Of a stretch of 64,000 nt of DNA, positions 16,537-48,053 are shown piece by piece. The stretch comes from Micromonospora sp. WMMD1128 (GTDB taxonomy: Bacteria > Actinomycetota > Actinomycetes > Mycobacteriales > Micromonosporaceae): positions 5,110,001 through 5,174,000 of the forward strand of contig NZ_CP114902.1 in the NCBI RefSeq assembly GCF_027497235.1, in the 5' to 3' direction. The position numbers and the translations under genes were made by a program. The notes beneath the pieces are model-generated. The model was not told the DNA's origin. It made no database searches and worked only from the letters and a program-made list of their open reading frames with translations. Each line of letters begins with the position of its first letter. The stretch's first letter is position 1.

Positions 16537-17514
<978 letters not shown>

Positions 17515-17889
17515 CTAGCGGGTTACGGTGGCGCGCGCCGAGACCGCGTGCGACGCGATCGCCGCTGCCGCGGCGCTGTGCGAGGCGATCGCCGCTGCCG
17601 CGGCGAAGCCGAACGCGCCACCCGCCACGGCGGGCAGGATGGTCACGCTGTCGCCGTCGTTCAGCTTGGCGTCGAGCGCGCCGAGGAAGCGGACGTCCTC
17701 GTCGTTGACGTAGACGTTGACGAACCGGTGCAGCGCGCCGGCCTCGGTGACCAGACGTCCGCGCAGGCCGGCGTGCCGGGAGTCCAGGTCGGTGAGCAGG
17801 TCGGCGAGCGTGTCGCCGGTGCCCTCGACGACCTTCGCGCCGCCGGTGTAGCTGCGCAGGATGGTGGGGATGCGAACCTCGATGGCCAT
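17515..17889 (-). CDS. cysO: Sulfur carrier protein CysO with a C-terminal extension beyond the diglycine
   Basis: The ubiquitin-like protein has 124 residues from ATG 17889, which has GAGGAG upstream. Residues 1-91 match the ThiS/MoaD fold of CysO and end ILPAVAGG, where CysO normally stops so that Gly-Gly can be activated. Here 33 residues follow, with two tandem copies of an AAAAAIASH unit produced by a 30-base DNA duplication (17549-17605). If the tail is real the carrier must be processed before use, and the JAMM protease gene mec lies 68 bases upstream in the same operon. A sequencing error near the diglycine is the main alternative, but the tail reads cleanly to a TAG. Confidence 0.88.
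   Translation of the reverse strand: MAIEVRIPTILRSYTGGAKVVEGTGDTLADLLTDLDSRHAGLRGRLVTEAGALHRFVNVYVNDEDVRFLGALDAKLNDGDSVTILPAVAGGAFGFAAAAAIASHSAAAAAIASHAVSARATVTR
17549..17605. repeat. 30-base tandem duplication inside the cysO tail
   Basis: The segments 17549-17575 and 17579-17605 share the core GCGATCGCCGCTGCCGCGGC at a period of 30 bases, so the duplication keeps the frame. It encodes the two AAAAAIASH units of the CysO extension. Confidence 0.85.
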
Positions 17890-17957
17890 GGTGTCTCGTA
17901 CTCCTCGTTCAGGGTCGTGCCGGGTGACGGAAAGGGAAGGGCGTGCCGGTGCTGGGG

Positions 17958-18446
17958 TCAGCGGCCGGAACACTCGTAGTCGACCGTCGCCGGGCTCTGC
18001 CCGAACATGTAGGACTGGACGGCGTTCGGGTCCACAGCGGCGTCCACGATCTCGACCGGCTCCTCGGTGACCACGCCGTCGACGATCCGGAAGGAACGGA
18101 TCTCCTCGGCGTCGGGCTCACGGGTCGAGACGAGCAGGTAGTGCGCGCCCGGCTCGCCGGCGAAGGAGACGTCCGTGCGGGACGGGTATGCCTCCGTCGC
18201 GGTGTGCGAGTGGTAGATCACGACCGGCTCCTCGTCGCGGTCGTCCATCTCGCGCCACACCCGCAGGTGCTCCATCGAGTCGAACTCGTAGAAGGTCATG
18301 GAACGGGCGGCGTTGTCCATCGGGATGTGCCGGGTCGGGGTGTCGCTGCCGACGGGACCGGCGACCACGCCGCACGCCTCGTCCGGATGGTCCCGACGCG
18401 CGTGCGCCACGATCGCGTCGATGATCGACCGGTCGATGCTCAGCAC
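17958..18446 (-). CDS. mec: JAMM/MPN+ metallopeptidase Mec, CysO-cysteine protease
   Basis: The 162-residue protein has a complete JAMM zinc site: Glu23 (PDEACGVVAG), His79 and His81 with Asp92 in HSHTATEAYPSRTD. In mycobacteria this enzyme hydrolyses the CysO-cysteine adduct to free cysteine and regenerate CysO. Its second potential task here, trimming the CysO tail, is discussed under findings. GTG 18446 lies seven bases after TAGGCT (18459-18454), which suggests a leaderless internal promoter separate from the clpS promoter. Confidence 0.93.
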   Translation of the reverse strand: MLSIDRSIIDAIVAHARRDHPDEACGVVAGPVGSDTPTRHIPMDNAARSMTFYEFDSMEHLRVWREMDDRDEEPVVIYHSHTATEAYPSRTDVSFAGEPGAHYLLVSTREPDAEEIRSFRIVDGVVTEEPVEIVDAAVDPNAVQSYMFGQSPATVDYECSGR

Positions 18447-18501: not shown

Positions 18502-19005
18502 TCAGTCGATGAGCGCGTTGAGCAGGGACTCCTGGAGATATCCGAGATAGGCGTAGACCGACAGTTGGAACACCCGGGACGAAGCCGGGTCGGTGGCGAC
18601 CGCGTCGTCGAGCTCCTCACCCAGGTCGGTGCCGTCCTTGATCTCCAGCCGCACGCCCATCGCCAGCCGGGCGTCGTTGAGCGCCCGCAGCCACGCCTCC
18701 GCCGCCTCCGCGTCCAGCCGCACCTCACCGCCGTCGTCGCCGTCGGGGAGCGCGGCGAGGATCGCGCCGGCCTGGTCGATCTTCGCGGTCTTGAGGTCAC
18801 CCTCGGTGTAGCGGCGGAACTCGGCGGTGCCGGCGTCGTCGTCCGGGTAGACCTCGGGGAAGAGCCGGCCGACCACCGGGTCGCCGTGGTCGAACCCGTC
18901 GGTGAGCAGGCCGACCACCTCGGAGGCGACCTTGCGCAGCACCCGCACCTCGTCGACGGCGAAACTGGCCACGTAGCGGTCGCCCCGGCGACGGAACATG
19001 CTCAT
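18502..19005 (-). CDS. DUF2017-family protein
   Basis: The 167-residue cytoplasmic protein starts [15 protein letters not shown], is acidic in its middle ([16 protein letters not shown]) and helical at the end ([17 protein letters not shown]). ATG 19005 overlaps the clpS stop by four bases. In actinobacteria a protein of this kind regularly follows clpS, which points to a role around the Clp protease or its adaptor, though no function is established to my knowledge. Confidence 0.85.
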
Positions 19006-19301
19006 GATCTCTCCACCGTCGCCCACAGTCCGTACGCGTGCAGTTGCGCCGCGTCGTGCTCCATCCGCTCCCGGGCCCCGCTGGAGACCACCGCCTTGCC
19101 CTTGTGGTGCACGTCCAGCATGAGCCGCTCCGCCTTCTCCCGGCTGTATCCGAAGAGCTTCTGGAACACCCAGGTCACGTACGTCATCAGGTTGACCGGA
19201 TCGTCCCAGACGATCGTCACCCATGGCCGGTCGGAGACCGGCACCTCGTCGGTGTCCGGCGTCTCGACCGGCGCAACCTGTGGAGCCGCCATGCCCCCCA
19301 T
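19002..19301 (-). CDS. clpS: ATP-dependent Clp protease adaptor ClpS
   Basis: The 99-residue adaptor hands N-degron substrates to ClpAP/ClpCP. The core is intact: [20 protein letters not shown], then [20 protein letters not shown] with the binding-pocket Asn-Leu-Met and the later His-His. ATG 19301 (MGGMAAP) has GGTGG nearby; ATG 19292 is nearly as good. Longer upstream reading is only random high-GC frame. It begins the run clpS-DUF2017-mec-cysO-cysM. Confidence 0.93.
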
Positions 19302-46240: not shown

Positions 46241-47767
46241 TCAGCTTACCGTGATCGCTTCCAACGACACCCCGTCGTTCTGCCCGCCGGTCACCGAGAG
46301 CGCCCGCCAACTGATCAGCAGCCGCTCGCCGCGCGGTGCCCGGAAGTGGACGACGTACTGGTAGAACTGGTCGCCCCGGGCGAGCGCCACCTCCCGGACC
46401 GCCGGGTCGCCACCGCCGGAAAGCGAGACGTCGAGCCGCGCCCCGGCCGAGAAGACGCCGACGAACAGGCGTACGGTCCGCAGGTCTCCGCTGCCGGCCA
46501 CGGCGAGCGTGAACCTCTTCCCGGCGCCGCGTTGGAAGACGCCCGCCCGGGTGCCCTCCTGCCGTGCCACCGGGGTCCCGTCGGTCCAACTGAGACCCGA
46601 CACCCCCGCGTTGTGTTCCAGCCGCTCGCCGCCCGGGTCCTCGATCTCGCCGGTGCCGCGCTGCTTGCGCTGGACGCTGTCCGCGCCGCTGCCACCCCAG
46701 TGCCGCCAGTCCCGCGTGCCGAGCAGGGTGAGCGACACCGACGGCGGCACCGACTGCTGGTCCAGGTTGAGCAGCGGCCCGCCGGGCAGGGCCGGGTCGC
46801 CGGTGACCGGCACGACGGTGGGGGGCGCCGCCGTCGGCGGCTGCGTCGAGACCGTCGGCGCCGCGACCGGCGCGGTGCTCCGACGATGCTCCGGCGCCGG
46901 TGACCGGGCGGAGTAGGCAAGCGCCACCACCGAGACGGTGAGCGCGGCGGTGGCCAGGAGGACCCGCCGGCGCCGCCGCCGGACCCGGGCCGCGCCGACG
47001 CGGGTGGACGCGGTCCCGGACGCCGGCCGGGCCGCGGGCCGGCGACCGCGCGGCAGGCGGCTGGATGCCGCGCGCAGCCGGGTCGCGAGCGGGCCGGTCA
47101 GGCCGACGAGCCGTGTCCGGAGGCTCTCCGGGGCGGTGTGCCGGCCGGGTGTCGCCGGTCGCCCGCCGCCGTCCTTGAACGGGTAACCGCCGGCCGGCCG
47201 GGGCCGCGCCGGGGCCTCCCGCGAGACGGCCCGACCGGATCCCGGCGTCCGCCGGCCGGGTGCCGGACCGACCACGTCGAGCCCGATCGGAGCCGGCCCG
47301 ACCAGCGGAGCGTGCCCGGAACCAGGGCCGCTCAGCCCGGACCCGGGGCCGCCGCTCAGCCCGGACCCGGGGCCGCCGCTCAGCCCGGACCCGGGGCCGC
47401 CACTCAGCCCGGACCCGGGGCCGCCACTCAGCCCGGGCCCGGGGTCGCCACTCAGCCCGGGCCCGGGGTCGCCACTCAGCCCGCGCCCGGGGTCGCTCGA
47501 CGCGGCACCGCCGGCCGCCGGGCCGACGAGCGGAGGTCCGATCGGAGAAGGGCCGACGAGCGGGGGTTCGACAAGCGCAGGACCGACGGGCGGAGAGCGG
47601 GTCGGCTCGGGTTCGGTCGGCTCGGGTTCGGTCGCGGCGAGGTCCGGATCTCCGGGCAGGCGACGCGGGCCGGCGGGCGGCGGCGGCGTGGCGGGCGGCT
47701 CGACCGGCACGTCGGGCAGCCAGCCACCCACCCGGATCCCGGCCTGCGTGATCTCGTCCTCAGCCAC
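46241..47767 (-). CDS. Single-pass membrane protein with DW-WG ectodomain, paralog 2, with a long repetitive cytoplasmic region
   Basis: The protein has 508 residues. Residues 1-270 are low-complexity and presumably cytoplasmic, including PTEPEPT repeats and about six SGGPGSGL-like octapeptides from a 24-base DNA repeat (47326-47490). A basic stretch precedes one transmembrane helix (VLLATAALTVSVVALAYSA), a Pro/Thr stalk and an ectodomain matching paralog 1 (TRDWRHWGGSGADSVQRKQR, GEIEDPGG, WTDGTPVARQEG, FRAPRGERLLISW, VSLEAITVS). GTG 47767 has AGGGAGGGG upstream. The order suggests an operon into paralog 1 after 140 bases. The function is unknown. Confidence 0.72.
   Translation of the reverse strand: MAEDEITQAGIRVGGWLPDVPVEPPATPPPPAGPRRLPGDPDLAATEPEPTEPEPTRSPPVGPALVEPPLVGPSPIGPPLVGPAAGGAASSDPGRGLSGDPGPGLSGDPGPGLSGGPGSGLSGGPGSGLSGGPGSGLSGGPGSGLSGPGSGHAPLVGPAPIGLDVVGPAPGRRTPGSGRAVSREAPARPRPAGGYPFKDGGGRPATPGRHTAPESLRTRLVGLTGPLATRLRAASSRLPRGRRPAARPASGTASTRVGAARVRRRRRRVLLATAALTVSVVALAYSARSPAPEHRRSTAPVAAPTVSTQPPTAAPPTVVPVTGDPALPGGPLLNLDQQSVPPSVSLTLLGTRDWRHWGGSGADSVQRKQRGTGEIEDPGGERLEHNAGVSGLSWTDGTPVARQEGTRAGVFQRGAGKRFTLAVAGSGDLRTVRLFVGVFSAGARLDVSLSGGGDPAVREVALARGDQFYQYVVHFRAPRGERLLISWRALSVTGGQNDGVSLEAITVS
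47326..47490. repeat. 24-base tandem repeat inside the paralog 2 gene
   Basis: Units such as CCGCTCAGCCCGGACCCGGG recur about every 24 bases, roughly six times, with minor variation. They encode Ser-Gly-Gly-Pro-Gly-Ser-Gly-Leu type octapeptides, so copy-number changes would keep the reading frame. Confidence 0.8.
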
Positions 47768-47943
47768 CGCCCCTCCCTCGGCTGCCGGAGCCGGCGGCCG
47801 TCAACGCGGTCCACCGCAGGGCAGGATGACACACGCCTCGATCTTCGAGAAGTCGTCGGCGCGGGCCAATTTTCCCGACGGCCGGCACCTGCCGCGCGTC
47901 GGTCCGGCGAAAACCCTCGCCCCCTCGCCGAGGCGGCGGGCTG

Positions 47944-48053
47944 CGGACGGCGGACGGCGGGCGGCGGGCGGCGGGCGGCGGGCGGCGGGCGGCGGGCGGC
48001 GGGCGCCGAGGCAAGCCGGTGAGGCGACGAGGCGGCAAGCCGGTGAGGCGACG
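47944..48053. repeat. Heptanucleotide run and a 20-base direct repeat
   Basis: About nine copies of CGGGCGG (first two CGGACGG) occupy 47944-48006. They are followed by GGCAAGCCGGTGAGGCGACG twice (48010-48029 and 48034-48053). The stretch fills most of the 303-base gap between the pentapeptide-repeat gene stop and GTG 47767. No gene is evident in it. Confidence 0.85.

What the first reader, a model, noticed from the sequence alone, without database searches (positions are those of the whole stretch)
17515..18446. CysO with its diglycine buried under a 33-residue tail next to the JAMM protease Mec
CysO must expose Gly-Gly for activation and normally ends there. Here ILPAVAGG is followed by an Ala-rich tail containing an in-frame 30-base tandem duplication. 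JAMM proteins of related carrier systems can trim residues after the diglycine, so Mec might mature this precursor before its known CysO-cysteine cleavage. That would make cysteine synthesis depend on a pro-carrier, a control layer I have not seen described for CysO.
Basis: partly seen in the sequence, partly recalled or inferred. Interest (0 to 1): 0.8.

Follow-up and report, generated by a model that had tools for sequence, protein, structure and literature searches.

The report
Sulfur carrier CysO with conserved tail
In Micromonospora and many of its relatives, the small protein that carries sulfur for cysteine synthesis is encoded with a tail that hides its working end; the first part of that tail is tightly conserved and is probably cut off by the neighbouring protease Mec, a known kind of step with an unusually long and conserved tail.

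Summary
The CysO gene (17889-17515, minus strand) encodes 33 residues after Gly-Gly, including a 30-bp tandem duplication. All 160 genus genomes read have residues after that position; 153 of 160 tails begin A[FL]GF[AV]A. The tail has two parts. Codons 1-9 (AFGFAAAAA) are under purifying selection (pN/pS 0.10; core 0.25). The distal part looks unconstrained (about 1), varies by 10-residue repeats, and stops 9-14 nt before cysM. In the window's genome Mec is the only Prok-JAB hit, and the two other ThiS-type carriers found end in bare GG. Best reading: Mec cuts after GG before MoeZ can load sulfur.

The novelty claim is too strong. Caps are common across the class (47 of 76 loci parsed), and a capped Streptomyces platensis carrier (GG-MV) beside a JAMM protease needed for thioacid production was published in 2018 (PMC6006322). 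Nothing found bears on regulation. The cut, the cutter and the tail's function remain inferred.

The parts
17617..17889 (-). cysO, 91-residue ThiS-type core ending ILPAVAGG (Gly-Gly codons 17617-17622)
   Evidence: Pfam ThiS 1.6e-17 over residues 5-91; matches the CysO chain of 3dwg and 4n6e_B, both ending in GG
17587..17616 (-). conserved proximal tail, codons 1-10 AFGFAAAAAI
   Evidence: pN/pS 0.098 for codons 1-9 over 156 loci; A[FL]GF[AV]A in 153 of 160 genomes
17515..17586 (-). variable distal tail ASHSAAAAAIASHAVSARATVTR and stop TAG
   Evidence: pN/pS 0.93 for codons 11-15 and 1.01 for the last five codons, positions not strictly homologous
17548..17605 (-). 30-bp tandem duplication, 1.9 copies, spans both tail parts
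   Evidence: Tandem Repeats Finder
17958..18446 (-). mec, JAMM metalloprotease, 162 aa, candidate maturase
   Evidence: Pfam Prok-JAB 7.9e-31; model matches JAMM and deubiquitinase structures
16537..17502 (-). cysM, cysteine synthase that uses CysO thiocarboxylate in mycobacteria
   Evidence: closest PDB sequence 3dki_A, O-phosphoserine sulfhydrylase, E 1.1e-149, residues 1-321
18502..19005 (-). DUF2017 gene of the same run
   Evidence: Pfam DUF2017 4.4e-48
19002..19292 (-). clpS, its stop overlapping the DUF2017 start
   Evidence: Pfam ClpS 2e-22; overlap read

Best explanation
CysO is made as a capped precursor. Shown by sequence: residues after GG exist throughout the genus, the first 9-10 of them are under protein-level purifying selection, and the partners MoeZ, CysM and a single Prok-JAB protein (Mec) are encoded. 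Inferred: Mec, which in mycobacteria cuts cysteine from CysO-cysteine after the same Gly-Gly, also hydrolyses the Gly-Ala bond and frees a 33-residue peptide; only then can MoeZ thiocarboxylate the C-terminus and CysM use it. Less sure: the conserved AFGFAAAAA helix does more than block the end (presents the junction to Mec, or keeps the unfinished carrier inactive or soluble), while the distal repeats are tolerated spacer that takes the stop codon to the cysM ribosome-binding region.
For: GG kept in 159 of 160 genus genomes. Window genome: one Prok-JAB hit, one MoeZ over its NCBIfam cut-off, three ThiS-type carriers of which only CysO is capped. Mec found in 61 of 61 genus genomes, with no second Prok-JAB hit in 51; JAMM reading frame upstream of cysO in 159 of 159 parsed genus loci. 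Selection on tail codons 1-9. Outside the family the first cap residue is S, M, A or C in 78 of 85 capped distinct loci. Published: deletion of the JAMM gene ptmS1 abolishes thioacid products in S. platensis. Model: GG junction 90-95 has pLDDT under 50.
Against: No cleavage was observed. In S. platensis deletion of the capped carrier ptmS2 alone left the products, and in the passages I saw its cut by PtmS1 was not assayed; caps were removed in cloning. MoaX is cut after Gly-Gly by an unidentified protease, so another enzyme is possible. 10 of 61 genus genomes have a second Prok-JAB hit. By eye Mec shows no feature that goes with the tail: the 140-aa Actinoplanes copy (tailed) lacks the C-terminal stretch of the 162-aa copies. 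Cap residues follow clades and S, C, G and R lie one base from a stop codon.
Confidence: 0.7

Rival explanations
1. By-product of gene layout: loss of the old stop let the frame run on to the cysM ribosome-binding region, which couples translation, and Mec removes whatever happens to follow GG. The tail has no function.
For: The stop lies 9-14 nt before the cysM start in 156 of 159 loci, and the distal tail looks unconstrained; caps elsewhere are short and varied.
Against: Codons 1-9 are conserved as protein while synonymous sites vary; many loci with bare GG also have cysM close by. It may well be right for the distal part alone.
Confidence: 0.12
2. The tail is removed, but by another protease, and Mec only releases cysteine.
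For: MoaX is cut after Gly-Gly in M. smegmatis by an unidentified protease (PMC4326299); non-JAMM proteases were not surveyed here.
Against: The JAMM gene adjoins the capped carrier and, in S. platensis, its deletion abolishes thioacid products; the window genome has one Prok-JAB hit.
Confidence: 0.12
3. The tail stays on and tailed CysO is the working form in some other role.
For: Strong selection on the proximal tail could mean that it is part of the mature protein.
Against: GG kept in 159 of 160 and the partner set kept; tailed and bare CysO share the invariant PAVAGG end.
Confidence: 0.05
4. Sequencing or assembly error hides a stop after GG.
Against: 160 of 160 genus genomes have residues there.
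Confidence: 0.01

Closest known systems
PtmS2 and PtmS1 of Streptomyces platensis (PMC6006322; section 7 read whole, other passages seen)
   Same: A sulfur carrier whose Gly-Gly is capped, encoded beside a JAMM protease, in a genome with one MoeZ-type activator; ptmS1 is needed for thioacid products
   Different: Cap of two residues (MV) against 33 with a conserved proximal motif; role shown in a natural-product pathway, not in cysteine synthesis; that PtmS2 is a CysO is my inference from its 90-residue core and MV cap, as in Streptomyces locus L107
QbsE/QbsD of thioquinolobactin synthesis (through PMC6006322; the residues CF are recalled)
   Same: JAMM protease exposes the Gly-Gly of a capped carrier
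   Different: Siderophore pathway, short cap
CysO-CysM-Mec pathway of mycobacteria (PMC3227635 passages; structures 3dwg, 3dki)
   Same: Same carrier, synthase and protease families and same gene order
   Different: The solved CysO chain ends at GG; in an unnamed genus of the same order 21 of 23 parsed CysO loci end at GG (25 held)
MoaX of M. tuberculosis (PMC4326299, passages)
   Same: A carrier with internal Gly-Gly that must be cut there to work
   Different: The tail is a whole MoaE domain; the protease is unidentified
Operon type 4d of Iyer et al. 2006 (PMC1779556, passages)
   Same: ThiS/MoaD, JAB, cysteine synthase, ClpS and a helical protein; the window has clpS-DUF2017-mec-cysO-cysM
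   Different: The passages I saw do not mention a tail on this carrier

Membership tests
CysO sulfur carriers | ThiS-type fold with a C-terminal Gly-Gly in the core | tested here: met
   Pfam ThiS 1.6e-17; closest PDB sequences 4n6e_B and 3dwg_C, E 4.4e-33 and 3.3e-29
CysO sulfur carriers | Gene beside cysM and mec | tested here: met
   mec-cysO-cysM on one strand
CysO sulfur carriers | Free C-terminal Gly-Gly in the gene product as encoded | tested here: not met
   33 residues follow; so it is a CysO only after processing, or a capped CysO
CysO sulfur carriers | Thiocarboxylated by MoeZ and used by CysM | not testable with these tools
   needs biochemistry
JAMM proteases (Mec) | Prok-JAB domain with E...HSH-x7-S-x2-D motif | tested here: met
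   Prok-JAB 7.9e-31; motif in 313 of 313 copies read; fold matches JAMM1 and Rpn11
Capped carrier plus JAMM maturase (PtmS2/PtmS1, QbsE/QbsD kind) | Carrier with residues after Gly-Gly, JAMM gene adjoining | tested here: met
Capped carrier plus JAMM maturase (PtmS2/PtmS1, QbsE/QbsD kind) | The JAMM protease removes the cap | not testable with these tools
   inferred only
O-phosphoserine-dependent CysM | Closest solved relative is the M. tuberculosis O-phosphoserine sulfhydrylase over the full length | tested here: met
   3dki_A, E 1.1e-149, residues 1-321; the organism name is recalled; specificity residues were not checked
MoeZ activators | ThiF plus rhodanese, MoeZ equivalog over cut-off | tested here: met
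   NF005902 739.6 bits against 647; ThiF and Rhodanese in Pfam

The most novel reading that the evidence does not exclude
The Micromonosporaceae CysO tail is a propeptide with a job of its own. The A[FL]GFAAAAA[IL] helix, kept more strictly than the carrier core, would act before the cut as a docking or shielding helix, or after it as a peptide released once per CysO made. The second tail residue is Phe or Leu in most genus genomes and clpS sits in the same gene run, so disposal through the ClpS N-degron route (recalled biology) after loss of the first Ala is one possible form; nothing here tests it.
Probability: 0.3. Interest if true: 0.75.

Novelty: new variant of a known kind. Interest (0 to 1): 0.5.

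Why it matters
If Mec does both jobs, one protease opens the carrier and later releases its product at the same Gly-Gly, so in a large actinomycete family each new CysO molecule must be cut before it can carry sulfur. There is a practical side: recombinant CysO from these genera should be given its GG end, or be made with Mec, to be active. The GG-C ends seen in 11 loci of Geodermatophilus, Blastococcus and Modestobacter have the same sequence as a peptide-bonded CysO-cysteine, ready-made natural substrates on which to test Mec.

Tried and rejected
Sequencing error: rejected, the tail is genus-wide. RNA or DNA element: rejected for codons 1-9, because synonymous sites vary freely (pS 0.35 in the genus, 0.51 in 30 loci of the Actinoplanes-type genus). 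Change of Mec with the tail: none seen, by eye only. Structure: the tail helix 92-122 has pLDDT about 50-70 and does not tell whether it packs on the core. The broad protein search scored 8000 candidates and listed 120, most of those with a source name being Micromonosporaceae, so it was not used for counts. Literature: Sasaki et al. 2014 on Amycolatopsis is not held; I recall that it describes a Mec-like protein acting on the C-terminus of carriers there, could not check it, and if so the precedent is closer still. The listings of eight searches showed no description of a long CysO tail; the library lacks most subscription papers.

Full report
What is there. The window's genome belongs to a genus whose members match named Micromonospora records (the genus loci and the named loci share contigs of equal length, for example 1,664,885 bases for M. 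saelicesensis). On the minus strand lie clpS, a DUF2017 gene, mec, cysO and cysM, the actinobacterial operon type listed as 4d by Iyer et al. 2006 (PMC1779556, passages). CysO has a 91-residue ThiS-type core ending PAVAGG, then 33 more residues and a TAG stop. The 30-bp duplication at 17548-17605 is real.

Genus survey. A protein search matched 160 of 160 genomes of the genus. I read the DNA of one locus from each of the 160. A script parsed 159; the last, L134, was read. GG is present in 159 of 160; the exception, L238, reads GA with a 112-residue frame after it and looks frame-shifted in a draft genome. The residue after that point is Ala in 159 of 160. The tail begins A[FL]GF[AV]A in 153 of 160; the seven others are L231 and L235-L240. 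Median tail length is 28 residues, range 2-67 without L238; the shortest is AR (L237). The cysO stop lies 9-14 nt before the cysM start in 156 of 159; in three the start was not found by the script.

Selection. Nei-Gojobori counts on 156 loci (of the 159, L225 and L237 were dropped for short tails and L238 for its frame) gave pN/pS 0.098 for tail codons 1-9 (pN 0.035, pS 0.354), 0.254 for the core (every second sequence, 78 loci), 0.93 for codons 11-15 (150 loci) and 1.01 for the last five codons; codons 1-9 read in shifted frames gave 3.4 and 3.5. The two distal figures do not rest on homologous positions, since repeats shift them, and pairs of related genomes are not independent. Resampling genomes gave 0.020-0.158 for tail 1-9 and 0.212-0.282 for the core, with the tail below the core in 100 of 100 replicates. 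In 30 loci of the Actinoplanes-type genus every tail begins ALGF[AV]AAAA and the ratio is 0.014 against 0.198 for the core. Those 30 are the best matches to a query that contained the tail, so they are a biased pick.

Family. I then searched one genome for each of 36 other genera of the family; 35 had a match and were read. By eye 24 of 35 tails have A[FL][GA][FLI] followed by an Ala-rich stretch or a close variant of it; 11 do not: four end at bare GG, and the caps of the others are AR, M, M, SVDRM, ALATWS, ALGSPPAE and AVLGGAVAGGAAALS. A quick tree of Mec, CysM and CysO cores of chosen loci (65 rows; one further locus, L344, was not parsed) needs 6 changes for the motif, its starred branches force 5, the shuffled mean is 20.7, and 0 of 500 shuffles are as low. 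I read this as one origin inside the family and a few losses; 19 of 59 inner branches are open, and the tree does not prove it.

Class. Of 217 genomes of the class, 174 had a match. I picked 80 of those loci by hand to spread over families; 76 were parsed: 29 end at GG, 8 have one extra residue, 25 have two, 14 have 3-49. Together with the named loci and the loci of one genus of the same order, 150 of 156 loci outside the family were parsed, 148 of them distinct: 63 bare and 85 capped. The first cap residue is S 26, M 21, A 20, C 11, G 4, R 2, T 1; S, M, A and C together make about 24% of any-frame codons downstream. Caps follow clades, so these are not independent cases, and C, S, G and R lie one base change from a stop codon. 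In the genus of the same order 21 of 23 parsed loci end at GG (25 held, 2 unparsed).

Controls inside genomes. The window's genome has three ThiS-type carriers by Pfam search: CysO with its tail, one before a thiazole-synthase-like gene ending SAAQGG, and one beside a MoaA-like gene ending PPFAGG (the neighbours are named from their sequence, not from a search). It has one Prok-JAB hit, Mec, and one ThiF hit over the cut-off, a MoeZ with a rhodanese domain. Of 61 genus genomes searched for Prok-JAB, 61 have a strong hit and 51 have no second. Among second, weaker carrier matches of other genera (24 loci, 21 parsed) 17 end at GG, 2 have an extra A, and 2 run in frame into a thioesterase-type domain. 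mec was found by tblastn in 154 and cysM in 157 of 160 further loci; the six without mec include loci cut short upstream, so absence is not shown.

Structure. The CysO model has a confident core, a junction at 90-95 with pLDDT under 50, and a tail helix 92-122 at about 50-70. That agrees with an accessible scissile bond but proves nothing. The Mec model (mean pLDDT 78.3) matches JAMM proteases and deubiquitinases.

Literature. Dong et al. 2018 (PMC6006322; section 7 read whole, other passages) report PtmS2 with GG-MV and PtmS3 with GG-C in Streptomyces platensis, state that capped carriers typically need a protease as QbsD shows, and find that inactivating the JAMM gene ptmS1, clustered with ptmS2, abolishes the thioacid products, whereas inactivating ptmS2 alone does not. 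They removed the caps during cloning for the enzyme assays, so in the text I saw the cut by PtmS1 was not assayed. I take PtmS2 for a CysO because its core ends at residue 90 and its cap is MV, as in Streptomyces locus L107; this is inference. Iyer et al. proposed that a JAB could free a fused ThiS/MoaD. MoaX is cut after Gly82 by an unidentified protease (PMC4326299). That MoeZ forms the CysO thiocarboxylate and Mec releases cysteine in mycobacteria is from PMC3227635 (passages). The listings of eight searches showed no report of a long CysO tail, in a library that lacks most subscription journals.

Judgement. Maturation by Mec is likely but is a known kind of step. No result bears on regulation. 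What deserves attention is the conserved proximal tail: it is kept as protein, not as DNA, and more strictly than the core, though Streptomyces carriers do with caps of two residues. Why it is kept is open.

Noticed in passing
L437:1441-2178 and L410:1471-2160: In two other genera of the family a second sulfur carrier runs in frame through ...PSVAGG into a thioesterase-type (4HBT) domain (Pfam ThiS and 4HBT in both). It would need a cut after Gly-Gly to act as carrier, like MoaX.
   Followed up: partly
L062, L066-L068, L073, L076, L077, L080, L082, L083, L088 (ends of the CysO ORFs): CysO ends GG-C in 11 loci of Geodermatophilus, Blastococcus and Modestobacter: the same sequence as CysO-cysteine with a peptide bond, the known product that Mec cuts.
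   Followed up: no
L252, L261, L262, L056 (CysO tails): Some tails repeat the end of CysO itself (for example ...VTILPAVAGG-SAMMPATLGKVTILPAVAGG in L261), so Gly-Gly occurs twice. Which one is used is unknown.
   Followed up: no
17611-17613 (second tail codon) and 19002-19292 (clpS): The second tail residue is Phe or Leu in most genus genomes, and clpS lies in the same gene run; Phe and Leu are N-degron residues for ClpS (recalled). No test was made.
   Followed up: no
L238 (end of CysO) and L242: Two genus loci lack the second Gly: L238 (G145) looks frame-shifted at the diglycine in a draft assembly, and L242, a second CysO-like gene of G069, ends AGAHSGSPPRRPW.
   Followed up: partly
47327-47496 and 47932-48005: Two other clean tandem arrays in the window: a 24-bp unit with 7.1 copies at 97% matches, and a 7-bp unit with 10.6 copies at 94%.
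   Followed up: no
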